DNA of 64,000 nt, from positions 1-64,000 of the forward strand of contig JAEQMT010000037.1 of assembly GCA_016722945.1 (NCBI GenBank). Reading direction: 5' to 3'. This DNA is from Desulfofustis sp. PB-SRB1. GTDB taxonomy: Bacteria; Desulfobacterota; Desulfobulbia; Desulfobulbales; Desulfocapsaceae. The notes below the pieces were generated by a model that saw nothing but the letters and a program-made list of their open reading frames with translations, was not told the DNA's origin and searched no databases. Position 1 is the stretch's first letter. Each line of letters begins with the position of its first letter. Positions 42,099 to 62,776 of the stretch are shown here, one piece after another. The translations under genes were made by a program, and so were the position numbers.

Positions 42099-43175
42099 TT
42101 AATTGTCTCGTTCATGAAGCCAGGCTGCAATTTTCGGGGCAAAATCACGCTGATATTTGGAACTCACGTATATACCGATATGGCCGGTATTGAAGCAGAT
42201 GTCCTCCTTATCGTCAGAACCGATCATCGAAGTGAAGGTCTCGCATGCCTCGGGCGGCACCAAGTGGTCGAACCTACCATAAAAATTCAACACCGGCATG
42301 GTGATATTGGAAAGATCCACCCGCTCGCCGTCAATTTCCAGTTTTGACTGAATGAGCAGGTTTTTCTTGTAGAAATTGATGATGAACTCCTTGAAGGTAG
42401 CGGCGGGCACATCGGGGCTGTCAAAAATCCATTTTTCCATGCGGACAAAATTTTCCACGTAGTCCTTATTGTCGATATTCTGAAGAAAACCGACGTATTT
42501 ATCAATCATCAAGCGAGCCGGGTTAAGCAGGAGAAACCCCAGATTCATAACCTCACCCGGCATATTGGAGTAAATATCGCCGAGGACGTGGGCATCGGTA
42601 TGTTTCATCCAGATGTTGAGCAGTCCCTTGTCAGTGTCAAAATTCGTCGGGGTGACGGTGGTCACCAGGTTTTTCACCTTTTCCCGGTGCAGGGCGCTGT
42701 AGATCACGGAAAAGACCCCGCCCATACAGATGCCCATGATATTGAGCTGACCGATCTGATGGCGGGCCAGGATGAAATCGACAATACCAGCGATATAGCC
42801 GTTCACATGATCGCCGATGGTCTGAAACTGATCCTTGCGGGTGGGATACCCCCAGTCGACCATGTACACCTCAACCCCCTGGTTCAGCAGTGTCTCCACG
42901 ACACTGCGGCGGGGTTGGAGATCGAGCATGGTCTCCCGGTTGATCAACGCATAGATCACCAGCAATGGATGCTTGAAACGCACCTTCTCCGGCACGTAGT
43001 GTTTGAGCTTGACCCGGTCTTCCTGGTAGACGGTCTCATACGGGGTGACCGAAATATCGGTGCTCAGCTCACTGGTGAGCACTGAAGTCGCTTTCTTGAA
43101 CCGGCTCCTGGCCGATTTACTGTCTTCGCCGAGGTTTTTGAGAATAAGATCGACGGGAATACTAACCTGGCTCAT
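42099..43175 (-). CDS. phaC: Class III polyhydroxyalkanoate synthase PhaC
   Basis: A 358-residue synthase catalytic subunit, the usual class III size. The nucleophile is Cys150 (IMGICMGGVFS), the acid Asp303 (YGRFDHLVPPE) and the base His332 (NTGHIGIYVS). It polymerises (R)-3-hydroxyacyl-CoA at the granule surface together with PhaE, encoded 22 bases upstream on the same strand. All catalytic residues are present. Confidence 0.95.
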   Translation of the reverse strand: MSQVSIPVDLILKNLGEDSKSARSRFKKATSVLTSELSTDISVTPYETVYQEDRVKLKHYVPEKVRFKHPLLVIYALINRETMLDLQPRRSVVETLLNQGVEVYMVDWGYPTRKDQFQTIGDHVNGYIAGIVDFILARHQIGQLNIMGICMGGVFSVIYSALHREKVKNLVTTVTPTNFDTDKGLLNIWMKHTDAHVLGDIYSNMPGEVMNLGFLLLNPARLMIDKYVGFLQNIDNKDYVENFVRMEKWIFDSPDVPAATFKEFIINFYKKNLLIQSKLEIDGERVDLSNITMPVLNFYGRFDHLVPPEACETFTSMIGSDDKEDICFNTGHIGIYVSSKYQRDFAPKIAAWLHERDN

Positions 43176-43197
43176 CTGCTTGCCCCCAGAGTATGAT

Positions 43198-44145
43198 TCA
43201 ACCTGCGTCCGGCAGCGCCTGCTGCTGTTTCAGGGTTTCCACCTGGCGCGAGAGGATGCGAACCTTCTTCTTTAATTCATGAAGATCGCGGTACAACTCA
43301 TCCATTTCCCTGCTGGTGGGGATTTTGAGATCTTTAATAAAGACATCGGTCACATCCTGCTTCACCGTTTTATACTCGGCTAGTGATTGAATAAAGTTAT
43401 TCATAACCTGAGTGTACTCCGGTGACTTCAAAAGCTCCATGTAGTGACCTTCAAGTACTTTGACCCATTCGCCGTAGAGCTTTTTATAATCGTCGACGAA
43501 CTCTCCTCTTTCCAGCATCTCCTTCGTCTTTTCCTGCATGACCAGATTGGTCTTTTCAAACGGCAGGTAAAACAGATACATGAGTTCCAGCAAGTGAGAG
43601 TTATAGATGTTGGATTTATCGAATAACTGGCTGACCCGCTCGTGGAACTCGCGGGGCAGCCCGATCTTCGGGATCTTCATATATTTCTGAAATTCCGACC
43701 GATACCACTCGCGCATAGATTCAAAAGCGCCGTGATCAAGCTCGTCGAAATTATAGGCCTTGGTATGCTCGCTTGCCTTGGCAAAGCTGTTTACCAACTG
43801 GGCCTGCAACTCGGTGAAATGCTCAAATGATTCTCCCGTCGCCTGGACGAATGCTTCCGCCAGACTGCTTACCCCTTTGTTAAGCGCTTCCTGATTTTCG
43901 GGCGCCCCCAGCAGCCGCATGAAGGCAAGAAAATTATTGAACGAGGTTTCCCACGACCGATACGTCCGATACTTCTCTTCGCCAGCGGCAGGTGCGGCAT
44001 GAGAGAAATCAAAAGAAAACGGAGGCGGTTGCGAGGAGACACCGGGAGAATGCGCACCGATAGTCTGCCAGAACTGGGCGGCTGTGTCGAGCCACGCCGT
44101 ATATAATCGGGCCATGTCAGGGGAATTATTGGTGGTATCCGTCAT
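43198..44145 (-). CDS. phaE: Class III PHA synthase subunit PhaE
   Basis: A 315-residue helical partner of PhaC. The family is poorly conserved, but the length, the W-rich central part (GEWVKVLEGHYMELLKSPEY) and the C-terminal coiled coil (DELYRDLHELKKKVRILSRQ) fit PhaE. It directly precedes phaC. A palindromic repeat separates it from phaR. Confidence 0.87.
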   Translation of the reverse strand: MTDTTNNSPDMARLYTAWLDTAAQFWQTIGAHSPGVSSQPPPFSFDFSHAAPAAGEEKYRTYRSWETSFNNFLAFMRLLGAPENQEALNKGVSSLAEAFVQATGESFEHFTELQAQLVNSFAKASEHTKAYNFDELDHGAFESMREWYRSEFQKYMKIPKIGLPREFHERVSQLFDKSNIYNSHLLELMYLFYLPFEKTNLVMQEKTKEMLERGEFVDDYKKLYGEWVKVLEGHYMELLKSPEYTQVMNNFIQSLAEYKTVKQDVTDVFIKDLKIPTSREMDELYRDLHELKKKVRILSRQVETLKQQQALPDAG

Positions 44146-44177
44146 GGCAGTTTTCCTTCCTCCATATGTAAAATGAG

Positions 44178-44270
44178 TGGGGTCAGGTCTTTTATTTTGG
44201 TGTTTTTGCCAATTTTACGGTCTGAGAGTCTACACAAATTAAAAACACCAAAATAAAAGACCTGACCCCA
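44178..44270 (+). repeat. 92-bp palindromic repeat, solo copy 2
   Basis: A 93-base element, TGGGGTCAGGTCTTTTATTT to its inverse, with centre ACGGTCTGAGAGTCTACACA. It is inserted between phaR and phaE and could uncouple their expression by terminating transcription. The near-identical arms of this and copy 1 indicate recent spread. Confidence 0.9.
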
Positions 44271-44276
44271 TTGGTT

Positions 44277-44708
44277 CTACTTCTTTTTGCTAAACATATT
44301 CATGGCTTCGAGATCCTTGATCGTTTTCTCGGCAAGGCTGGAAAAATCCATCCCCATATCAAGGTACACATTGACCTGATCATCCATGGTTTTTCGGTAG
44401 ATCAAATAATTCTCCATGGTTTTTTCCAGATAGTTTTCAAAAAACTCATGCAGCAGATTCTCCCCAAACTGAATCACCAGGTGAAGCAGAGACACCGGTA
44501 GCAATCCCTGATTCTTCTTGGCCTTGTCCATGATAATCTGGGTAAGCACCAGGGCGGTAACATCCTCACCGCTGGTCACATCCTGAACCTCTACCCGGTT
44601 GCCGGCTCGAATCATGTCGGCTACGTCGGCAATGGTGACATAGCTGCTCATTTTAGTATCATAGAGCCGCCTGTTCGGATATTTTTTGATTAGGATTTTG
44701 TTTTCCAT
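44277..44708 (-). CDS. phaR: PHA synthesis repressor PhaR
   Basis: A 143-residue regulator. The N-terminal DNA-binding domain (ILIKKYPNRRLYDTKMSSYV, then TIADVADMI) is diagnostic of PhaR/PHB accumulation regulators. The rest is the PHA-binding part (FFENYLEKTMENYL). PhaR represses phasin genes until it binds nascent granules. The start at 44708 (MENKIL) matches the family; a GTG 15 bases upstream is less likely. It is apparently encoded upstream of phaE. Confidence 0.92.
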   Translation of the reverse strand: MENKILIKKYPNRRLYDTKMSSYVTIADVADMIRAGNRVEVQDVTSGEDVTALVLTQIIMDKAKKNQGLLPVSLLHLVIQFGENLLHEFFENYLEKTMENYLIYRKTMDDQVNVYLDMGMDFSSLAEKTIKDLEAMNMFSKKK

Positions 44709-45013
44709 GGGGAACGGGCTCACTGGCCGTCCGGCGGCCGCTCTTGGCCTTTAAAATCGGTGAAATTCTCGCCACTTTAAAGGTTATTGTCGCTGTAGCG
44801 CCTTGTCAATTGACTTATCAGCTTGAAATACCTATAAATTTAAAATTAGGAAATGGAAATGCTTAACTTGCGAAAAAATAACCATTTCTTTATGTACCGG
44901 TACCCTGTTTAGCCTTGACAGCAGATTACCTCTTATATTTACTGGGGTTGATAAGAAAGGTTCCGATTTTCAGCAGATGTATTCCCGATTATCTCATTAC
45001 GGAGCAGACAGTT
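44709..45013. promoter_or_regulatory. Divergent promoter region, phaR / phasin
   Basis: About 300 A/T-rich bases between divergent phaR and the PhaF-like phasin. PhaR operators would be expected here, but I could not define a motif. An open frame from 44915 runs into the phasin gene without a good ribosome-binding site. Confidence 0.4.
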
Positions 45014-47785: not shown

Positions 47786-48448
47786 TCATAGCTCCGATAT
47801 CAGTTCCGGATTACCCTGGGCCTGAAGAAATTTGGCGAAGTTCTTCTTGATCTTGGGCAGCTTGAACATCGATTTTACTGATCCTTTCTTGGTCATTTTG
47901 GCCAGGGTGGACGGGTTAAAATACCCCTTGGCGTTATCAACCGTAAGAACAAACGGCGGCTTGCTGTCACTTACCATGATGTGGCTCATCAGCAGGGCGC
48001 CGGTCCGGTGATTGCCCTCCCAGAAGAGCTGGGGGACGCTGATGCCCAGAATATAGACGCCGGCGGCTCGTTTCCAGGGTGTATCCTTTTTGTGGTTGTC
48101 ATGCCACTTGCGGATATGCTTGATGGAAAAGGTCTTTTGCGAATAGAAGCGCTCGATGGTCGCCTCGATGTGCTTGCTATAATCCTCACGCATTTTGGGG
48201 TCGGTGCCGCACAGCACGATATGGTTTAATTCCAGCAGATGCTCCACTTCAGCGCGCCGCAGGGGGTTGATGCGTTTGCGCAGGAGGTAATTGACGTACT
48301 CGTAGCCGGCCAGCATATTCTCGACGATAAAATCCTCCAGCGGCTCACGGCGCATGAACAAGGTCTCGTTGATCTTGTCGAAATTGCGCTGCACGGCGCG
48401 CAGTAACGCCTCGACGTTCTCTATGTCTACCTGATAGATAATTGTCAA
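47786..48448 (-). CDS. Fic-like protein with altered active-site motif
   Basis: A 220-residue Fic/Doc-fold protein. The motif region reads PQLFWEGNHRTGALLMSHIM. Aligned to HPFx(D/E)GNGRxxR, the Phe, acidic, Gly-Asn and first Arg are kept. The catalytic His is Gln140, the second Gly is His147 and the second Arg is Ala151, so normal AMPylation is not expected. The neighbouring region PPFVLTVDNAKGYFNPS belongs to a subgroup I recall from deltaproteobacteria. The start is TTG 48448, preceded by GAGGT. It lies 61 bases downstream of phaJ on the same strand. Confidence 0.75.
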   Translation of the reverse strand: MTIIYQVDIENVEALLRAVQRNFDKINETLFMRREPLEDFIVENMLAGYEYVNYLLRKRINPLRRAEVEHLLELNHIVLCGTDPKMREDYSKHIEATIERFYSQKTFSIKHIRKWHDNHKKDTPWKRAAGVYILGISVPQLFWEGNHRTGALLMSHIMVSDSKPPFVLTVDNAKGYFNPSTLAKMTKKGSVKSMFKLPKIKKNFAKFLQAQGNPELISEL

Positions 48449-48509: not shown

Positions 48510-48929
48510 CTACCTTTTGGGCGGGCTTACCAATGCCTCACCATCAACCACCAGGGTGCCGTGCTGGTTGGTGCAGGTGGTGCGCAGAACCACCCGTTTT
48601 TTGTCGGTGATAATGTCGATTACCTCGGCGGTAGCGGTGATGGTATCGCCGATCCGGGCCGGCGCCAGAAACTTCACCTCCTGCTTGATGTAAATGGATC
48701 CCGGCCCCGGTAGATAGCAGCCGATGACGGTGGAGATGAAGCCGGCCAGCAAGATGCCGTGCGCGATCCGGCCCTTGAAGGCAGTACCGGCGGCGTACTC
48801 CTCGTTGATGTGAAAAGGGTTCAGATCGCCGGTCACACCGGCAAAGAGATAGATATCCGCCTCTGAAATGGTCTTGCTGAAACTGGCCGTCTCGCCAACG
48901 TTTAACTGAGCTATCGTTTTTCCGTTCAT
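48510..48929 (-). CDS. phaJ: MaoC-type (R)-specific enoyl-CoA hydratase PhaJ
   Basis: A 139-residue hot-dog-fold hydratase with the catalytic Asp/His in GDLNPFHINEEYA and the FKGRIAHGILLAG helix. It hydrates crotonyl-CoA and other enoyl-CoAs to (R)-3-hydroxyacyl-CoA, the PHA synthase substrate, linking fatty acid or glutarate degradation to storage. GGAGG precedes the ATG. It is closely related to the MaoC domain of the fusion at 52183 (for example SGDMNPTHLSDEYA). Confidence 0.88.
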   Translation of the reverse strand: MNGKTIAQLNVGETASFSKTISEADIYLFAGVTGDLNPFHINEEYAAGTAFKGRIAHGILLAGFISTVIGCYLPGPGSIYIKQEVKFLAPARIGDTITATAEVIDIITDKKRVVLRTTCTNQHGTLVVDGEALVSPPKR

Positions 48930-49383: not shown

Positions 49384-50142
49384 CTATCCCATGATTTCCA
49401 CGCCGGTGTCGATGGGGTAGATCATGGCGGTTATGGAGCGATTTTCCAGCACGCTGACGGCAAGATCGGCGATATCTTCGTTGCGGACATTGGTTTTTAG
49501 CGGCGAGCGCAGCTTTTCACGCTCAAGAATCTCCAGGCTGTTGCCAACCTTGCTGATGGAGTAGGTGGGAACAAACCCGGGCGAAATGGCGTTGACCCGG
49601 ATGCGTTTGGCGTTGCCCAGTGATTCGGCCAGTCCCCTGACAATTGATTCCAGACCAGCCTTGGCCGCCCCCACCATATTCAGTCCCGGCACCGCGAAAC
49701 GGCTCCAGCGCAGGGTCAAGGCGAGAATGGAGGCGTCCTCTTTGAGCACCTCGAGCAGACCGCCGGACAACTCCACCAGGGAAAAGGCACCCACCCGAAT
49801 CGCATCGGTAAATTCCTCCCAGCTGATATCCGCCAGGTTCATGCCCAGCTTGGCGCCGTGCGCGGTGGAATAAGAGATACCATGCACCAATGCGTCCAAT
49901 TGCAGGTTCTGATCTTTTACGGCGCTCACGAAGGCGTCCAGATCTTCGTCTTGGCGGGCGTCATAGGCAAACATCGAGCGAAATCCGATGGCATCGGCCA
50001 CCCGCTTGACGCCCGCATAGGTAGTTTCATCCTGATAGGTGGCTACAATGTCGTAGCCGGCGCTTTTGAGCTCGGCGGCAATGGCCGTACAGACGCTCTG
50101 TTCGTCTCTGATACCCACCACCAATGCGGTTTTACGCTCCAT
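49384..50142 (-). CDS. FabI-like paralogue lacking the catalytic tyrosines
   Basis: A 252-residue enoyl-ACP-reductase-family protein. The cofactor-binding N-terminus (KTALVVGIRDEQSVCTAIAA) is kept. In the active-site stretch the usual Y..YxxxxxxK becomes LTLRWSRFAVPGLNMVGAAK: Lys is kept but both tyrosines (equivalents of E. coli FabI Tyr146 and Tyr156) are replaced. It may be a different reductase, a binding protein or a regulatory partner of the intact paralogue encoded just upstream. GGAG precedes ATG 50142; a TTG two codons earlier is less likely. Confidence 0.85.
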   Translation of the reverse strand: MERKTALVVGIRDEQSVCTAIAAELKSAGYDIVATYQDETTYAGVKRVADAIGFRSMFAYDARQDEDLDAFVSAVKDQNLQLDALVHGISYSTAHGAKLGMNLADISWEEFTDAIRVGAFSLVELSGGLLEVLKEDASILALTLRWSRFAVPGLNMVGAAKAGLESIVRGLAESLGNAKRIRVNAISPGFVPTYSISKVGNSLEILEREKLRSPLKTNVRNEDIADLAVSVLENRSITAMIYPIDTGVEIMG

Positions 50143-50165
50143 TGTCAATCTCCTTGATAAACCGG

Positions 50166-50930
50166 TTATTCCGGATCGACCCTGATAGTGGCACTGGCTC
50201 CGCAGTCCACCAGATATACCACGCCGTTTATGGACGGGTTGGTGATGACCTCCACCGCCATGGTACCGATATCCTCCAACTCCGCCGTATGGCCCAGCGG
50301 ACTGGCATCAGAGGCCACTTTGAGCAGGTTGCTGAACCCCTTGATGCCGCTTCCCGCCCGGGTCATCACCGGCCCCGGCGACAGGGCGTTGACGCGAATA
50401 CCCTTACCGCCCAGTTCACTGGCCAAGCCGCGCACCAGTGATTCGAGAATTGACTTGACCGGCCCCATCATGTTGTATCCCTCAACGGCAAGATGCGAAC
50501 CGATATACGACAGGGTGAGGACACTGCTGCCGGGATTGAGGACATCGGCCTTGATCAGGGCGGAGACGATCTCAACCATGGAAAAGGCCGATACCCGGGT
50601 GGATTGTTTGAAACTCTCCCACGACACCTCGTGCAGATCTTTTTTTATCTCCGAGGCAAAGGCGATCCCGTGGACAAAGGCGTCCAGCCTGAGGCTGTTC
50701 TCCCGCAGGTAGGCAATTACGGCCTGCAGTTGATCATCGTTGCCCACCACATAGGGAAAGAGTTTTTCCACCCCCAGTTCATCGGTCACCTCTCTGACGT
50801 AAGGCAGCGCCTTGTCGTTGAGGTAGGTGGGGATAATGTTGTAACCGGCGCCATACAATTGTTCGGCAATACCGGCGCTGATGCTGTCCTTGTTGGCAAT
50901 ACCGATTACCAATGCGTTTTTCCGGCGCAT
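50166..50930 (-). CDS. Enoyl-ACP/enoyl-CoA reductase, FabI-like
   Basis: A 254-residue FabI-type SDR with the active-site pair intact (VEGYNMMGPVKSILES, Tyr and Lys) and the preceding Tyr in LSYIGSHLAV. It uses NAD(P)H to reduce an enoyl thioester. In this cluster, next to acetate kinase and PTA, the substrate may be an enoyl-CoA rather than acyl carrier protein. The tyrosine-less paralogue follows 23 bases downstream. GAGGTG precedes the start. Confidence 0.87.
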   Translation of the reverse strand: MRRKNALVIGIANKDSISAGIAEQLYGAGYNIIPTYLNDKALPYVREVTDELGVEKLFPYVVGNDDQLQAVIAYLRENSLRLDAFVHGIAFASEIKKDLHEVSWESFKQSTRVSAFSMVEIVSALIKADVLNPGSSVLTLSYIGSHLAVEGYNMMGPVKSILESLVRGLASELGGKGIRVNALSPGPVMTRAGSGIKGFSNLLKVASDASPLGHTAELEDIGTMAVEVITNPSINGVVYLVDCGASATIRVDPE

Positions 50931-50961: not shown

Positions 50962-52164
50962 CTAGACGGTAACATCGCCCAGCAGTACGTCTCTGGTATG
51001 AGTGGCGATCATCAACTCCTCATTGGTGGGAATAACCATAACCGCAATCTTGCTTTGCGGTCTGCTAATGAGTGTCTCTCCACGCCCGTTTGCCGCCTCA
51101 TCAAGCTCGATGCCGAGCCAGGAAGCAACATCGCAGACGCGCTGGCGAATTTCCGGTGAGTGCTCGCCGATACCGGCGGTAAAGATAAGTCCGTCAAGTC
51201 CGCCCAGAGCAGCGGTCAGCGAACCGATCTCGCGACCGATCCGGTAGACGAAAATCTCAATCGCCTCTTTGGCACGGGGATCTTCACTGGCAAGCAGAAC
51301 CCGCATGTCGTTGCTGATACCAGATATCCCCAAGAGTCCGGAGCGTTTGTAGAGCAGATCGGCGATCTCGTCGCCGCTCATCTGTTTTTCCTGCAGCAGA
51401 TAGAGCACCACGCCCGGATCGAGATTGCCGGGTCGCGTCCCCATGACAAGACCATCCATGGCGGAAAATCCCATGGTGGAGGCGACGCTGACTCCGATAT
51501 TGAGTCCGCACATGCTCACCCCGTTGCCCAGATGAGCGACAATAACGCGGCCATTGGCAAGTTCGGGGGCGAGTTCAGGCAACCGTCGGGCAATGTACTC
51601 ATACGACAAACCGTGAAACCCGTAACGACGCACCCCCTCCTCGCTCAGTTCATACGGCAGCGCAAAGGTCTGCGCCTCGGGCGGGTTGGTGCGATGAAAG
51701 GCGGTATCGAAACAGGCCACCTGCTCGATGTCGCCGCTCATCTGCAAGATCGTTCTGATGGAGCTGAGATTGTGCGGCTGGTGCAGCGGCGCCAGGACGA
51801 TGAATTGTTCCAGCTCAGCAAGTACCTGATCATCGACCTTGACGGGCCGGCTGTAGAAGGGGCCGCCATGCACCACCCGGTGGCCGACACCGCGCAGCTC
51901 CAGGCCCAACTCAAGTCGTCTGGCGCGAATCCAGTCGATGAGTTCCTCCATCAGGTGCTCGTGGCCGGAACTCGCCCCCTGTTCGAATTGTTTTTCATCG
52001 ATAACAAGGCCGTCGCCATCTTTGGCCTTGAACTTCGGCGCAGTGCCGATCCCTTCGATCTGGCCGGAAAAGATCAGTCGCATCTCCTCTTGTTCGATCT
52101 GGTCGAACAGGGAAAACTTGATGCTCGATGAGCCGCTGTTGATTACCGAAATGCATCCACTCAT
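50962..52164 (-). CDS. ackA: Acetate/propionate/butyrate kinase
   Basis: A 400-residue ASKHA-fold acyl kinase. N-terminal INSGSSSIKFSLF, then GHRVVHGG, FDTAFHRTNPP, RRYGFHGLSYEYI, VAHLGNGVSMC and FTAGIGEHSPEIR are the AckA signatures. It makes ATP from acyl-phosphate, or the reverse. It is encoded 18 bases downstream of the phosphotransacetylase fusion, its natural partner. CGGAG precedes the ATG. Confidence 0.94.
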   Translation of the reverse strand: MSGCISVINSGSSSIKFSLFDQIEQEEMRLIFSGQIEGIGTAPKFKAKDGDGLVIDEKQFEQGASSGHEHLMEELIDWIRARRLELGLELRGVGHRVVHGGPFYSRPVKVDDQVLAELEQFIVLAPLHQPHNLSSIRTILQMSGDIEQVACFDTAFHRTNPPEAQTFALPYELSEEGVRRYGFHGLSYEYIARRLPELAPELANGRVIVAHLGNGVSMCGLNIGVSVASTMGFSAMDGLVMGTRPGNLDPGVVLYLLQEKQMSGDEIADLLYKRSGLLGISGISNDMRVLLASEDPRAKEAIEIFVYRIGREIGSLTAALGGLDGLIFTAGIGEHSPEIRQRVCDVASWLGIELDEAANGRGETLISRPQSKIAVMVIPTNEELMIATHTRDVLLGDVTV

Positions 52165-52182: not shown

Positions 52183-53583
52183 TTAGGCTTTTACCGATTG
52201 AGCCGCGGTGCGCCGGGCAAAGGCAACCGCCGTGGCCACCGCGCAGGAGGCCAGCCGCGCCTTGGGAGTGTCGGCCCGGCTGGTGAGGATCACCGGTACC
52301 CGGGCGCCCACCACGATACCGGCGGCATCAGCGTCGATCAGATACTGCATCTGTTTTGCCATCATATTGCCCGCTTCCAGATCGGGCACCACGAAAATAT
52401 CGGCTACGCCGGCCACCTCCGATTTGATCCCCTTGATCATGGCGGCCTCTTTGGAGATGGCGTTGTCAAAGGCCAGCGGGCCGTCAAGAATGGCGCCGGT
52501 GATCTGGCCGCGATCAGCCATCTTGCAGAGTGATGCCGCCTCCATGGTAGAGGGAATCTTCGGGTTGATCGTCTCCACCGCCGACAGGATGGCAACTTTC
52601 GGCACCTCTATACCCAGGGAATGAGCCAGATCGATGGCGTTCTGGACGATATGATACTTGTCTTCCAGGGTCGGGTAGATATTGATCGCCGCATCGGTGA
52701 CGAACAGCGGTCGCGGGTAGGTGGGCACATCCATAATAAAGACGTGGCTGATCCGTGCAGCGGTGCGCAGACCGGTTTCTTTTTTCAGAATCGCCGACAT
52801 GAATTCATCGGTGTGCAGACTGCCCTTCATGATCGCCTCGGCGGCGCCACCGCGGCACAGGGCCACCGCCTCGGCGGCGGAGGCGTGGGAATGAGGCGTG
52901 TCGATCAGCTCATAGGGGCTGATATCGATGCCATGTTCATCCGCCACCCGCTGGATACGGTCTCTCGGCCCCACCAGGATGGGACGGATAATACTCTCTT
53001 TGGCCGCATCAATGGTTCCCCGCAGTGCGGTTTCGCTGCACGGGTGGGTAGAGGCCACGGCAATCGGCTCCCAGTCCCTGACCCGGGCGATAAGATCGCT
53101 GAATACGGTACGGGCGTGATACCTCAGATCCTCGAGGTCGATGCCCTCACCGGTGGCCTTAACAGATGGCGCAATCACCTCGGCAACACCCGTGATAATG
53201 AGCTCGCCGCGTTGATTCTCCACCCGGCAGTCAAAAATAACCGATCGATCCTCGGCTCTTTTTCCTGTGACCCTCACCGTTACCGTCACCGTGTCATCAA
53301 GATCAATTGAACCATGAAAATTGAGCTGCTGGGAACGATATACCGTGCCCGGCCCCGGCAGATCATTACCAAGAAGGCTGGAGATCAGGGCGCCGCCCCA
53401 CATGGAATGGCCGGAGACCTTTTGCCGCTCAAGCAGCATCTGGGCATATTCATCGCTTAAATGGGTGGGATTCATATCACCGCTGATCACGGCGAACATA
53501 TCGACATCGCGTTTGGTCAGGGCACGCTGCGTGGTGGCGGAATCGCCGACCCTGATCTCATCAAATAGCTTGTTGGTGATCAT
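52183..53583 (-). CDS. MaoC enoyl-CoA hydratase-phosphate acyltransferase fusion
   Basis: A 466-residue bifunctional protein. Residues ~1-140 form a MaoC hot-dog domain (SGDMNPTHLSDEYAQ, then GGALISSLLGNDLPGPGT). Residues ~165-460 form a phosphate acetyl/butyryltransferase (EAIMKGSLHTDEFMSAILKK and GAILDGPLAFDNAISKEAA). The first half can hydrate enoyl-CoA; the second swaps CoA for phosphate, feeding the adjacent kinase. Such fusions are known in proteobacteria with PHA/acetyl-phosphate clusters. Confidence 0.92.
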   Translation of the reverse strand: MITNKLFDEIRVGDSATTQRALTKRDVDMFAVISGDMNPTHLSDEYAQMLLERQKVSGHSMWGGALISSLLGNDLPGPGTVYRSQQLNFHGSIDLDDTVTVTVRVTGKRAEDRSVIFDCRVENQRGELIITGVAEVIAPSVKATGEGIDLEDLRYHARTVFSDLIARVRDWEPIAVASTHPCSETALRGTIDAAKESIIRPILVGPRDRIQRVADEHGIDISPYELIDTPHSHASAAEAVALCRGGAAEAIMKGSLHTDEFMSAILKKETGLRTAARISHVFIMDVPTYPRPLFVTDAAINIYPTLEDKYHIVQNAIDLAHSLGIEVPKVAILSAVETINPKIPSTMEAASLCKMADRGQITGAILDGPLAFDNAISKEAAMIKGIKSEVAGVADIFVVPDLEAGNMMAKQMQYLIDADAAGIVVGARVPVILTSRADTPKARLASCAVATAVAFARRTAAQSVKA

Positions 53584-55876: not shown

Positions 55877-58024
55877 TCACAATGTAAGTACCGCTTTAAT
55901 GCGGTCTAGCAGTTGCTGCTCCTGCTTGTCGATCTGCATATTGGCGGCGGCGATACTGTTGGCGATCTCGAACACCTCTTCCCGGTCACTTTTTTTGGGC
56001 AGTAATGCAGGAAGGGCATCAATGGCCTGGTGCAGGTCATGCTCCACCAGGGCCGCCTGTTCCTTGGTGATCCGTTTGAGATCGGCAGGCTTGAGGTGCT
56101 TGAGCCGGTCATTGGTCTGAATGATCATCTGGGCGACGGCGTACTCACGCTGATCGATGCTGCCGTCGGCGCCGGCCACCGCCAGGACGATGCGCACCAC
56201 CGCCGCGGCAAAGCCGCCCTTGACCATGGCGTCCGCCCACAACGCCTCTTCAAGTTTTGCCGTAGGCCGTTGCTCTGTTACCGGGGCGGTTCGCTGTTCG
56301 CCAAACGAGTGGCTGCCGAACAGGGTTTTCATCCAGGAATTTTCATACATGAACTTAAACAGCTTCTCGTCAGCGGCGTCACGCTTGTCGCAATAGCGAT
56401 CAAGCATGGCCTGGATGGCTGAAGAACAATCCTTCTCCCAGGCCATAAAGGAATTGTCGACAGCGGCCGGGCGCCGCTGCTGTTTGACCTGATTGGCCAG
56501 ATAGCTCAGGGGCCACATCCAGGGATTGAGATCGGAAAACATGTAACGTTGAACGCGCAGCGGATGGAGCTGACGCACCGTCTCAGCCACCCAGTCGTTG
56601 GTCATCATCCGCACCCAGGGGCTGCCGAAGGTGAGGTAGAGGCGGTCGTTGAAGCGGGATACGGCGGCCACCGAATCGAAGGCGGTTTCGTCATCGAGAC
56701 CGTCGTCGAGTTCGAGAATGTCTGTCATGGTACGTTCATGAAATTCCACCTGCTGACCGGCGCCCACCTTATCACCCTCGATAATCACCATCTCGTAGAG
56801 ACCGGGGGCAAGGTATTCGATCATGTCCACCGTACCGATAATAGCGGTATGCTCCTTGCGGGCCACCTTGGAGCCCACGAAAATGCCGAGATGACCGATC
56901 TTGGGATGGACGATATAGACGATCACCTGGCCGTTTCGCTTGATCTCATCAACCGTCTCATACACTTTGTAAATCCAGTTAAGCGCCTGCTGTGGCGGGG
57001 TGATGTTGTCGCCGGCGGAGGCAAAGACGACAATGGGATCCTTGAAGTTCTTCAGGTTGACCGCCTTATCTTCAGAAAGACGCAGGGTGCCCTGCTCCAG
57101 CTCGTTGCCCACGAAGAGTGAGTCGACGATGAAATGCACCTCCTCGCGGTTCATCTTGAAAAAACCGCCCCACCACTTTTCGAAGCTGAGATAGCGCTCT
57201 TCTTCCGTGTCGACGTTGGCCCAGACGTTGTATTGCTTGGTCCAGAGGGTGTTGGCCGGATTCAGATCTTCAAAGTTGGAGACCAGATGGGCGCCGTCGA
57301 AGATCCCATTGCCCAGATCGCAGAACAGCGAAGTCAGCCAGACGCCACCCACCAGACCGCCACGGTAGCGCATCGGATTGGCACCATCAACACCGCCCCA
57401 GTAGGACAAGGGAGAACCGTTAAACACCATGGGGCCGGTAACGTCGGGGCGATCCGCGCCGATCAGCGCCGTTGCCCAGCCGGCCTGACAATTGCCGATG
57501 ACCGCCGGCGGTTCGGCTTCGGGGTGACGGCGATTCACCTCTTCTAAAAAGGCGACTTCGGCGGCCTGCACATCGGCCATGGTCTGGCCCGGCTCAGGCT
57601 CGGGAAAAAACATCACGAAATAGACTGGATGACCGGCGTTAAGGGCGACGCCGATTTGTGAGTCGAGCTTCGAGCCGCCGATCCCCGGGCCGTGTCCGGC
57701 ACGTGGATCGATCACCACAATGGGCCGTTTTCCCGGGTCGATTTCAGGTGGTTCAGAAGCATCACCGGCACCGCCGGTGATGCGTACCACGGCATAATTC
57801 ACCGGGCGCGTGAAGGTGCGTCCGTCCAGCACCATTTCATAATCAAAAACAAGCACCGGCGGCTGCCCGGCCTTGACGTGGTCAAGATACATATTACCGC
57901 GTTTGTGCATAATTTCAGTAAACAAAGCGGCGCGCTGCCACCAGTCCACCGCATACTCGGCGGCGTCCTGGATCAGATTTTCACGCCCCCAGAAATAATT
58001 ATACCCGTTGTATGCTTTCATCAT
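55877..58024 (-). CDS. DUF3141 alpha/beta-hydrolase protein (PhaC-related)
   Basis: A 715-residue protein of the DUF3141 family, distant PHA-synthase relatives. The nucleophile elbow is VIGNCQAGWAT (Cys179), with a candidate acid in FASAGDNITPPQQA and base in VHPKIGHLGIFVG. The last ~130 residues (from about 590) are a TerB-like helical region (GADGSIDQREYAVAQMIIQT). It is the first gene of the CoA-transferase/PTA/AckA/FabI run and, from memory, accompanies pta-ackA-fabI in other proteobacteria. ATG 58024 is chosen because GGAG precedes it. Activity is unknown. Confidence 0.85.
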   Translation of the reverse strand: MMKAYNGYNYFWGRENLIQDAAEYAVDWWQRAALFTEIMHKRGNMYLDHVKAGQPPVLVFDYEMVLDGRTFTRPVNYAVVRITGGAGDASEPPEIDPGKRPIVVIDPRAGHGPGIGGSKLDSQIGVALNAGHPVYFVMFFPEPEPGQTMADVQAAEVAFLEEVNRRHPEAEPPAVIGNCQAGWATALIGADRPDVTGPMVFNGSPLSYWGGVDGANPMRYRGGLVGGVWLTSLFCDLGNGIFDGAHLVSNFEDLNPANTLWTKQYNVWANVDTEEERYLSFEKWWGGFFKMNREEVHFIVDSLFVGNELEQGTLRLSEDKAVNLKNFKDPIVVFASAGDNITPPQQALNWIYKVYETVDEIKRNGQVIVYIVHPKIGHLGIFVGSKVARKEHTAIIGTVDMIEYLAPGLYEMVIIEGDKVGAGQQVEFHERTMTDILELDDGLDDETAFDSVAAVSRFNDRLYLTFGSPWVRMMTNDWVAETVRQLHPLRVQRYMFSDLNPWMWPLSYLANQVKQQRRPAAVDNSFMAWEKDCSSAIQAMLDRYCDKRDAADEKLFKFMYENSWMKTLFGSHSFGEQRTAPVTEQRPTAKLEEALWADAMVKGGFAAAVVRIVLAVAGADGSIDQREYAVAQMIIQTNDRLKHLKPADLKRITKEQAALVEHDLHQAIDALPALLPKKSDREEVFEIANSIAAANMQIDKQEQQLLDRIKAVLTL

Positions 58025-58212
58025 TGTTCTCTCCGGCAATATGTATAGCGACTCGAAAACACCTTGATTGCAGCAAGGGTAATACTAAAATCTATGGGGG
58101 TGTGTTAAATTACCGTTAAAGTTGGCTAACGGCTGTAGGTGAGAAACGGGATAAATCGATGGATTTCGGCGGGGCGCCTCGCTTTTGCGCTGTTGGCGGG
58201 GCAGGATTAAGG

Positions 58213-60810: not shown

Positions 60811-62776
60811 CTTGGGTTTGCGGTCAGTAGGCACAAAATCGGTCGAATTCACTCCATTAGATAAGTCAAAATCGCTAAATTTCAACAACATATATCGAGC
60901 CAAATGTCAGGTGTGAGCTGAAATATGTAGGCACACGAATTGTATTTATTTCCTTGCATTAGCTGTCTATACATGCTATTTACGTAAGCATGTACCTGAG
61001 AACAACAAAACGCACCAACAAAGATGGCTCGGTCGTCGAGTACTTTCAGATTGCCCACAACGAGCGCCATCCAAAGACTCGCAAACCGGTCGCCAAAATC
61101 ATCCATAACTTTGGTAGAGCCGACCAACTTGACCGTCTTGAACTGGTACGACTGTGTCGATCTATCGCCAGGGTCTGTGGGTTGCATATCTCTGATCCAT
61201 TGGCTGAAGACGTGTTGCTACCAGAGGGAGAAGCAATAGGTATACCGCCTGATCTGAAGATCAAGCAAACGTTTGCTCTGGGGTGCCCGTTGGTCATTGA
61301 GACCCTATGGGAACGGCTCGGTTTGAAAAAGACGCTCAATAGTATTGAACAGGCAACCGGTAGTCAAGTTCCTTACGAACGAGCAATTCTGGCCATGGTC
61401 GCTAACCGATTATGTGACCCCGAATCCAAACTCGGGGTATGGGACCGCTGGCTGTCCACCGTCTACCTGCCTTCTTGTGCAAGCCTCAGGCTCAGGCATA
61501 TGTATGAAGCGATGGACCTGCTTCACGCCAATATCGATACCATTGAACAAACCGTGTTTTTCAACACGGCCAACCTTTTCAACCTGGAGGTCGATCTGAT
61601 CTTTTACGATACGACGACCGCTTCTTTCCAGGTCGATGCTGAAGACCATTCTGAAGCCGACCCCAACGCCACATTACGTAAATTTGGCCGTTGTAAAGAA
61701 GGCGGTTGGGCACCGCAGGTCGTCGTTGCTCTGGCGGTGACCCGCGATGGTATCCCGGTGCGTAGTTGGGTGTTGCCGGGTAATACCGCCGATGTCACAA
61801 CGGTAGAAAAAGTTCGCGCCGATCTCAGAGGCTGGAACTTGGGTCGGGCAATGTTTGTCGCCGATGCGGGGATGAACTCCGAAGATAACCGCGTTGAACT
61901 GGCCAAAGCTTGTGGGAAATATCTTCTGGCCTGTCGTATGGCCAGTATCTCTGAAATCAATTTGAAGGTTCTCAGTAAACGTGGCCGCTACACCAAATTT
62001 AAGGATAACCTCTATGCCAAGGAGATCATCGTCGGCGATGGTGAGAGGCGGAGGCGTTACATCCTCTGTTATAACCCCAAACAAGCGCAAAGGCAGCGGA
62101 GCCACAGACAGCTAATAATCGAGCTGCTTGAAGCTGAGTTGGCCACGCACAAGGATCACTCAGCAACTGCCCAGTGGGCTATTGAATTGTTGGCATCACG
62201 CCGTTTCAAGAAATATCTGCGAACCACCAAAGGTGGCCTCATTCGTATTGACCGGGCTGCCGTTGGTAAGGCGGCAAAGTATGATGGAAAATGGGTAATT
62301 GAAACCAACGACGATACCATTAGTCTCGAGGATGCGGCGTGCGGTTACAAGAGTCTGATGGTGATCGAGCGTTGTTTCCGCTCGTTGAAACGTACCCAGA
62401 TAAAGATGGTGCCGATGTACCACTGGGCCTCCCGAAGGATTGTGAGTCATGTCAAAATTTGCGTACTGGCCTTGCTTATCGAACGGATCGCTGAAATGAC
62501 CTGCGGCATGTCGTGGCACCATATCCAGCGAAATTTGGAGACACTGCAGATCACAGAATTTTTTGATTTAAAGTATCGTGTGCTTATGCGCAACGAAGTG
62601 ACAACAGAGGCAAGAAACATATTAAAATCATTAAAGATAAAGGTACCAAAGCAGCTCATACACGCGGAAAAAACAGCTTGAATTTGTAGACACACGCCGA
62701 ATCTTGCTATGCATCGCATAACCACCAACAGCAATGGTTTGCGGTGATTCATGTACTTACAGACCGCAAACCCAAG
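60811..62776 (+). mobile_element. IS1634-family insertion sequence, intact
   Basis: A 1966-base element. The ends are inverted repeats starting CTTGGGTTTGCGGTC (60811 onward; inverse GACCGCAAACCCAAG ending at 62776), with further partial matches inwards. A 5-base direct repeat, ATGTA, flanks it (60806-60810 and 62777-62781), the target duplication. It contains one full-length transposase gene. Confidence 0.88.
60990..62681 (+). CDS. IS1634-family DDE transposase
   Basis: A 563-residue transposase, full length for the family. The N-terminus MYLRTTKRTNKDGSVVEYFQ and the DDE residues in DLIFYDTTTASF (first Asp), AMFVADAGMNSE (second Asp) and the YKSLMVIERCFRSLKRTQIK region (Glu) are present. 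The frame is uninterrupted, so the element may be active. Confidence 0.92.
   Translation: MYLRTTKRTNKDGSVVEYFQIAHNERHPKTRKPVAKIIHNFGRADQLDRLELVRLCRSIARVCGLHISDPLAEDVLLPEGEAIGIPPDLKIKQTFALGCPLVIETLWERLGLKKTLNSIEQATGSQVPYERAILAMVANRLCDPESKLGVWDRWLSTVYLPSCASLRLRHMYEAMDLLHANIDTIEQTVFFNTANLFNLEVDLIFYDTTTASFQVDAEDHSEADPNATLRKFGRCKEGGWAPQVVVALAVTRDGIPVRSWVLPGNTADVTTVEKVRADLRGWNLGRAMFVADAGMNSEDNRVELAKACGKYLLACRMASISEINLKVLSKRGRYTKFKDNLYAKEIIVGDGERRRRYILCYNPKQAQRQRSHRQLIIELLEAELATHKDHSATAQWAIELLASRRFKKYLRTTKGGLIRIDRAAVGKAAKYDGKWVIETNDDTISLEDAACGYKSLMVIERCFRSLKRTQIKMVPMYHWASRRIVSHVKICVLALLIERIAEMTCGMSWHHIQRNLETLQITEFFDLKYRVLMRNEVTTEARNILKSLKIKVPKQLIHAEKTA

What the first reader, a model, noticed from the sequence alone, without database searches (positions are those of the whole stretch)
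49384..50930. Tandem FabI paralogues, one without its catalytic tyrosines
The upstream copy has YIG..YNMMGPVK as expected. The downstream copy has LRW..LNMVGAAK, losing both Tyr while keeping Lys and the cofactor site. Retention as a tight pair suggests a heteromer or a new reaction.
Basis: seen in the sequence. Interest (0 to 1): 0.55.

Follow-up and report, generated by a model that had tools for sequence, protein, structure and literature searches.

The report
FabI reductase with tyrosine-less partner gene
Two neighbouring genes of sulfate-reducer-type bacteria encode an apparently working enoyl reductase and a conserved sister protein that has lost the catalytic tyrosines, probably a non-catalytic partner subunit rather than a decaying copy.

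Summary
On the minus strand, FabI1 (50166-50930) keeps Tyr146, Tyr156 and Lys163 (E. coli FabI numbering). FabI2 (49384-50148; likely ATG at 50142, 23 nt after FabI1) has Leu146, Trp148 and Leu156 but keeps Lys163 and the cofactor residue Asp64. The Tyr loss is not unique to this genome and shows no decay. All ten full-length FabI2 (this one and nine others, 61-70% identical to it) lack both tyrosines (Phe/Leu at 156) and carry Trp148. Each lies beside a FabI1. Usable dN/dS values of the closest genomes are low and alike in both genes (0.05-0.11). FabI1 and FabI2 are sister clades. FabI1 has its own loss: Asp64 is missing in 10 of 10. In five of ten genomes the pair follows a MaoC-phosphotransacylase fusion and an acetate-type kinase; in three it stands without them. 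In FabI2 the cofactor site and presumed interface helices are conserved above average, the substrate pocket is not. The best reading is a hetero-oligomeric enoyl-thioester reductase with a pseudoenzyme subunit, perhaps crotonyl-CoA to butyryl-CoA in the kinase-linked loci. Assembly, substrate and activity are untested. Precedent for the kind: BbsCD.

The parts
50166..50930 (-). FabI1: FabI-type enoyl-thioester reductase with Y146, Y156, K163; lacks Asp64
49384..50148 (-). FabI2: paralogue without both tyrosines; LRW/LN motif, Lys163 and Asp64 kept; probable true start ATG at 50142
50962..52164 (-). acetate/propionate family kinase, upstream of FabI1
   Evidence: TIGR00016 375 bits against cut-off 293; same order in 5 of 10 pair loci
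52183..53583 (-). MaoC-type hydratase fused to phosphotransacetylase/butyrylase
   Evidence: PRK08190 693 bits against cut-off 282; PF01515 and PF01575
53692..55674 (-). CoA-transferase (FadX-like, below that family's cut-off), upstream neighbour
55877..58039 (-). DUF3141 + TerB protein; homologues lie by the pair in G542, G543, G799 and by the FabI2 fragment of G727
48510..48929 (-). stand-alone MaoC-type hydratase, downstream neighbour
   Evidence: PF01575
45732..46517 (+). FabG/PhaB-like SDR; a 72% identical homologue lies directly after FabI2 in G542
42099..44723 (-). class III PHA synthase PhaC, PhaE and PHA regulator PhaR
   Evidence: PhaC TIGR01836 401 bits, over its cut-off; PhaE and PhaR by Pfam over cut-off

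Best explanation
FabI1 and FabI2 come from one duplication and most likely form a hetero-oligomeric NAD(P)H-dependent enoyl-thioester reductase. FabI1 is the catalytic subunit. FabI2 is a pseudoenzyme subunit: it still binds the dinucleotide but cannot use it efficiently, because both tyrosines are gone, Trp replaces Gly148 and Phe203 is lost. It would stabilise or regulate FabI1 through the shared helical interface. In the loci with the MaoC-phosphotransacylase and kinase, the most likely step is crotonyl-CoA to butyryl-CoA, in a route from (R)-3-hydroxybutyryl-CoA (PHB store) via crotonyl-CoA, butyryl-CoA and butyryl-phosphate to butyrate plus ATP. Shown here: residues, pairing, sister relation, purifying selection, neighbourhood. 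Inferred: assembly, inactivity of FabI2, substrate and pathway direction.
For: Tyr146/Tyr156 lost and Trp148 present in 10 of 10 full-length FabI2; Lys163 and Asp64 kept in 10 of 10. FabI1 keeps Y146, Y156, K163 in 10 of 10. In 242 genomes, FabI2 hits (E<=1e-40) in 9 and FabI1 hits (E<=1e-50) in 8; all 8 have both, adjacent, and the ninth is a FabI2 fragment at a contig end. One more pair (G799) appeared in a wider sample (9 of 389 genomes with FabI2). FabI1 and FabI2 are each one clade and sisters, 100/99. dN/dS of the closest genomes: FabI1 0.051-0.093, FabI2 0.060-0.106. In FabI2 the cofactor columns (0.85, p 0.005) and the helices aE (0.81, p 0.020) and aF (0.82, p 0.016) are conserved above the gene average, the substrate columns are not (0.76, p 0.20); helix aE is not specially conserved in FabI1 (p 0.63) or ordinary FabI (p 0.48). 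The windows where FabI1 and FabI2 most resemble each other in excess of ordinary FabI all lie in or beside helix aE. InhA Y158F, the equivalent change, cuts catalysis and misdirects protonation (passages of PMC6222099). Operon and PHA cluster.
Against: No direct evidence of contact. The shared aE substitutions may only predate the duplication. Of the 16 shared-derived columns, 4 are in aE (110, 118, 122, 126) and 1 in aF, no clear excess over chance by my own arithmetic. The region sets rest on recalled FabI structure and were not corrected for multiple tests. InhA Y158F keeps some activity, so Tyr loss alone does not prove inactivity. Three of ten pairs lack the kinase operon within the fetched stretch, so the butyrate route cannot be the common denominator; and the transferase and kinase pass acetate-type, not butyrate-type, cut-offs. 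Loss of Asp64 in FabI1 is awkward for a plain catalytic subunit.
Confidence: 0.52

Rival explanations
1. FabI2 catalyses a different NAD(P)-dependent reaction on a neighbouring intermediate, with a new active site around Arg147, Trp148 and Lys163.
For: Trp148 10 of 10, Arg147 9 of 10, Val159 10 of 10, Ser93 10 of 10, cofactor site kept; long FabI2 stem of 1.53 changes per column.
Against: Substrate-pocket columns of FabI2 are not conserved above the gene average (0.76 against 0.69, p 0.20), unlike FabI1 (0.91, p 0.010); residue 147 is Asn in G637; position 203 varies (S/R/T).
Confidence: 0.15
2. FabI2 is a slow but working enoyl reductase acting as its own homomer; Phe/Leu156 is tolerated and the pair divides substrates.
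For: InhA Y158F retains partial activity by releasing a covalent adduct that decays (passages read in PMC6222099).
Against: Tyr146, Gly148 and Phe203 are lost as well. Strict adjacency of the two genes is not required by this reading.
Confidence: 0.12
3. FabI2 is a separate redox sensor or regulator that binds NAD(H) and acts on something other than FabI1.
For: Cofactor columns conserved (0.85, p 0.005); substrate site changed.
Against: No added domain in a protein of ordinary FabI length; always directly next to FabI1 where the contig allows a view.
Confidence: 0.08
4. FabI2 is a decaying duplicate.
For: Loss of both tyrosines.
Against: Ten full-length open orthologues with the same kind of replacements; omega 0.060-0.106 in the least saturated comparisons.
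Confidence: 0.03
5. The pair is the cells' general enoyl-ACP reductase for fatty acid synthesis (compatible with a heteromer).
For: In G713, G693 and G728 the next best E. coli-FabI matches are remote SDRs, there is no FabV-type hit, and FabK-type hits are below the family cut-off.
Against: 218 of 242 related genomes have no FabI match at E<=1e-25, so absence of another FabI says little in this group; FabK-type proteins match in 9 of the 10 genomes searched (G727 among them, G799 not).
Confidence: 0.1

Closest known systems
FabI / InhA enoyl-ACP reductases (E. coli FabI, NP_415804.1)
   Same: Sequence family, SDR cofactor site, length; FabI1 keeps Tyr146, Tyr156, Lys163 and is 38% identical to E. 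coli FabI.
   Different: FabI2 lacks both tyrosines, Gly148 and Phe203; FabI1 lacks Asp64 and has a shortened loop after residue 96. FabI as known is a homotetramer (recalled).
BbsCD, (alpha-hydroxybenzyl)succinyl-CoA dehydrogenase of anaerobic toluene degradation
   Same: Two SDR subunits of anaerobes, one an inactive pseudoenzyme in a heterotetramer (title of von Horsten et al., FEBS J., seen in the reference list of PMC10818641; details recalled).
   Different: A 3-hydroxyacyl-CoA dehydrogenase, not a FabI-type enoyl reductase; not compared by sequence here.
MaoC-Pta / acetate kinase / FabI operon of Legionella adelaidensis (NZ_LR134418.1)
   Same: Same upstream functions in the same order, followed by a FabI; MaoC-Pta 49%, kinase 40% identical to the window's.
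   Different: One FabI only, with both tyrosines and Asp64; it falls in another FabI clade than FabI1/FabI2.
Human HSD17B8/CBR4 3-ketoacyl-ACP reductase
   Same: SDR heterotetramer of two unlike subunits (recalled; the one paper listed was not read).
   Different: FabG-type reaction; not compared here.

Membership tests
FabI enoyl-ACP reductase (FabI1) | FabI-type SDR by sequence | tested here: met
   PF13561 189 bits; solved FabI structures E 1e-41
FabI enoyl-ACP reductase (FabI1) | active-site residues Y146, Y156, K163 | tested here: met
   10 of 10 FabI1
FabI enoyl-ACP reductase (FabI1) | Asp64 of the adenine pocket | tested here: not met
   absent in 10 of 10; present in 23 of 23 comparison proteins
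FabI enoyl-ACP reductase (FabI1) | NCBIfam FabI equivalog cut-off | tested here: not met
   best 213 bits against cut-off 337
FabI enoyl-ACP reductase (FabI1) | enoyl-thioester reductase activity | not testable with these tools
   needs an assay
FabI enoyl-ACP reductase (FabI2) | catalytic Tyr156 (and Tyr146) | tested here: not met
   0 of 10 full-length orthologues have either
FabI enoyl-ACP reductase (FabI2) | cofactor site: Gly13, Ser19, Asp64, Lys163, Thr194 | tested here: met
   all kept in the 9 full-length orthologues tabulated; Gln40 kept in 8 of those 9 (Glu in G542)
FabI enoyl-ACP reductase (FabI2) | enoyl-thioester reductase activity | not testable with these tools
   needs an assay
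SDR heteromer with pseudoenzyme subunit (BbsCD-like) | paralogous SDR genes kept together, one without the catalytic Tyr | tested here: met
SDR heteromer with pseudoenzyme subunit (BbsCD-like) | the two subunits assemble | not testable with these tools
   monomer predictions were of low confidence (mean pLDDT 56 and 55) and the structure tool predicts no complexes
Butyrate-forming Ptb-Buk route | phosphotransbutyrylase and butyrate kinase | tested here: inconclusive
   transferase passes PRK11890 (phosphate acetyltransferase) but not TIGR02706 (phosphate butyryltransferase, 331 against 410); kinase passes TIGR00016 ackA, not butyrate kinase

The most novel reading that the evidence does not exclude
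An obligate hetero-oligomeric enoyl-CoA reductase with reciprocal specialisation: FabI1 keeps the catalytic residues but has given up Asp64 of its adenine pocket, while FabI2 keeps a fuller dinucleotide site but no catalysis. FabI2 would act as the NAD(H)-sensing half that gates FabI1, making PHB-to-butyrate energy conservation respond to redox state.
Probability: 0.14. Interest if true: 0.72.

Novelty: new variant of a known kind. Interest (0 to 1): 0.5.

Why it matters
FabI is a well-studied drug-target family, described as homomeric (recalled). A lineage in which it works only with a tyrosine-less partner would give a natural test of what the tyrosines and the tetramer interface do. The operon also suggests a PHB-to-butyrate route with ATP gain in sulfate-reducer-type bacteria. 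In searches on FabI heteromers, tyrosine-less enoyl-ACP reductases and this operon's set of functions, judged from the listings alone, I saw no title on such a pair; only open-licence papers are held, so this is weak evidence of absence.

Tried and rejected
Decay was rejected by dN/dS and by orthologues. 'Sole fatty-acid reductase' was tested by looking for FabI, FabK and FabV in ten genomes (G000, G542, G543, G544, G637, G693, G713, G728, G754, G727) and weakened, where most relatives lack FabI as well. The FabK-like genes examined did not sit in an evident fab cluster, judged only from ORF layout and N-termini. AlphaFold models of FabI1 and FabI2 had mean pLDDT 55-56 on four-row alignments and are not used; no fold search was run. 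The 16 shared-derived columns are not clearly concentrated in the interface helices; only the sliding-window comparison points there. Many pairwise dS values were saturated or not computable (dS -1); only G693/G713/G728 and a few others are usable. Rows dropped: I left out G693 (near copy of G728), G754 (partial FabI1), the G727 fragment and the divergent L004; also L003 and L168 (FabG-like); the residue counts keep G693 and G754. An NCBIfam scan of the start of L003 hit an unrelated neighbour gene and was of no use. Papers: PMC9260719, PMC6222099 and PMC10818641 were read as passages; all others only as search listings. The aE/aF helix limits, the cofactor and substrate residue sets and the FabI homotetramer are recalled. 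What organism G000 is could not be named; the relatives named by record title are Desulfobacterales MAGs.

Full report
WHAT IS THERE. Two adjacent minus-strand genes encode FabI-type SDR proteins. FabI1 (50166-50930) is upstream; FabI2 (49384-50148) follows. The listed FabI2 start is TTG, but an in-frame ATG at 50142 behind AAGGAG is likelier, leaving 23 nt between the genes. Upstream on the same strand lie an acetate/propionate-family kinase (50962-52164), a MaoC-hydratase/phosphotransacylase fusion (52183-53583), a CoA-transferase and a DUF3141/TerB protein. On the other side, a few kb away, is a class III PHA cluster (PhaC, PhaE, PhaR at 42099-44723).

RESIDUES. By alignment to E. coli FabI (L094), FabI1 has Tyr146, Tyr156 and Lys163; FabI2 has Leu146, Arg147, Trp148, Leu156 and Lys163.

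IS IT CONSERVED? A scan of genome contigs with FabI2 gave three relatives, 66-70% identical, all in records titled Desulfobacterales MAGs, each with FabI1 next to it. A profile of the four FabI2 found 9 of 242 genomes near the first of these and 9 of 389 in a sample of its class (the samples overlap). FabI1 was found in 8 of the same 242: the same genomes except G727, where only a FabI2 fragment at a contig end is visible. In all there are ten genomes with both genes (G000, G542, G543, G544, G637, G693, G713, G728, G754, G799; FabI1 of G754 is cut by the contig end). Among the ten full-length FabI2, Y146 is lost in 10 of 10 (Leu 9, Phe 1), Y156 in 10 of 10 (Phe 9, Leu 1, this window), and Trp148 is in 10 of 10, Lys163 in 10 of 10, Asp64 in 10 of 10. 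FabI1 keeps Y146, Y156 and K163 in 10 of 10 but lacks Asp64 in 10 of 10, with V, K, A, E and Q each twice; 23 of 23 comparison proteins have Asp there. So the tyrosine loss is old and fixed, and FabI1 carries its own less obvious loss.

WHERE IT IS NOT. With FabI2 as query, no orthologue appeared in the window genome's own kin: 144 relatives (best hit outside the own genome 32% identity, E 6e-26) and 257 genomes of its class (2 at E<=1e-25: itself and that same hit). Among 297 genomes of its phylum, 37 had E<=1e-25 matches, the listed ones outside the own genome being at most 36% identical; the nine of these that I aligned carry Tyr156. The pair in this genome may therefore have been gained by transfer, or the 240,708-base contig may be misbinned (completeness 97.62, contamination 3.83). 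I did not settle this.

HISTORY AND SELECTION. In a 43-row maximum-likelihood tree FabI1 and FabI2 are each one clade (FabI2 100/100, FabI1 96/92) and sisters (100/99), with a long FabI2 stem (1.53 changes per column). The program warned of long branches meeting, so the sister relation carries that caveat. dN/dS between the closest genomes (G693, G713, G728) is 0.051-0.093 for FabI1 and 0.060-0.106 for FabI2. Most wider comparisons are saturated. FabI2 is under purifying selection.

NEIGHBOURHOOD. MaoC-phosphotransacylase and kinase lie before FabI1 in 5 of 10 genomes (G000, G542, G543, G637, G799). They are absent from the roughly 8 kb fetched on each side in 3 of 10 (G693, G713, G728), where neighbours include ecotin in two and a PAP2 protein in one. 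In G544 the stretch of about 1 kb before the contig end holds no kinase, and in G754 the contig ends inside FabI1. The unit that is kept is thus the pair itself, not the operon. DUF3141 homologues also accompany the pair or fragment in G542, G543, G799 and G727.

HOW IT MAY WORK. In FabI2 the cofactor columns are conserved above the gene average (0.85, p 0.005), as are helices aE (0.81, p 0.020) and aF (0.82, p 0.016); the substrate columns are not (0.76, p 0.20). In FabI1 cofactor and substrate columns are both conserved (0.93 and 0.91), helix aE is not. The region in and beside helix aE (E. coli about 104-142) is where FabI1 and FabI2 most resemble each other in excess of ordinary FabI (0.45-0.52 against 0.20-0.29 in the twelve top windows), sharing W110, R118, F122 and E126. 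In SDR tetramers aE and aF form a main subunit interface (recalled). I read this as a partner subunit that binds cofactor and FabI1 but no longer needs a substrate pocket. The limits: residue sets are recalled, p values are uncorrected, and common ancestry before the duplication could give the same shared helix. InhA with the corresponding Tyr-to-Phe change took about 3 h to consume its NADH where wild type took about 1 min at the enzyme amounts used, and it released a covalent adduct (passages of PMC6222099); so Phe156 alone would make FabI2 slow rather than certainly dead.

PATHWAY. In the kinase-linked loci the gene set would suit (R)-3-hydroxybutyryl-CoA -> crotonyl-CoA (MaoC) -> butyryl-CoA (FabI1/FabI2) -> butyryl-phosphate -> butyrate + ATP. 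The transferase and kinase score above cut-off as acetate-type, not butyrate-type, families, so acetyl or propionyl substrates remain possible. A Legionella adelaidensis plasmid has the same order with a single ordinary FabI, so the kinase operon does not need FabI2 everywhere.

COMPARISON. FabI1 looks like a FabI by sequence and active site; it fails two membership tests (Asp64, equivalog cut-off). FabI2 is FabI-derived but lacks the defining catalytic tyrosine, so it should not be called an enoyl-ACP reductase. The kind of arrangement, an SDR heteromer with an inactive subunit, is known from BbsCD (reference title seen). I know of none in the FabI family, and the listings of searches show none by title.

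VERDICT. Real, conserved and not decaying; most likely a pseudoenzyme partner subunit. Interest 0.5.

Noticed in passing
window 50166-50930 and FabI1 orthologues: FabI1 has lost Asp64 of the adenine pocket in 10 of 10 genomes, with variable replacements, while keeping the catalytic residues.
   Followed up: partly
242 genomes related to G713: 218 of 242 have no match to E. coli FabI at E<=1e-25; which enoyl-ACP reductase these bacteria use is not clear from this work.
   Followed up: partly
window 55877-58039: A DUF3141 protein with a TerB domain and weak PhaC similarity; homologues lie beside the FabI pair or fragment in G542, G543, G799 and G727.
   Followed up: no
window 47786-48448: Fic/DOC-domain protein (PF02661 just over its cut-off); a 45% identical homologue also lies near the FabI2 fragment in G727.
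   Followed up: no
window 60990-62681: DDE transposase a few kb beyond the operon, possibly bearing on how the region was gained.
   Followed up: no
G000 contig C15 (window): The pair is absent from the other class-mates searched (257 genomes) but present in Desulfobacterales MAGs; transfer or misbinning not resolved.
   Followed up: partly
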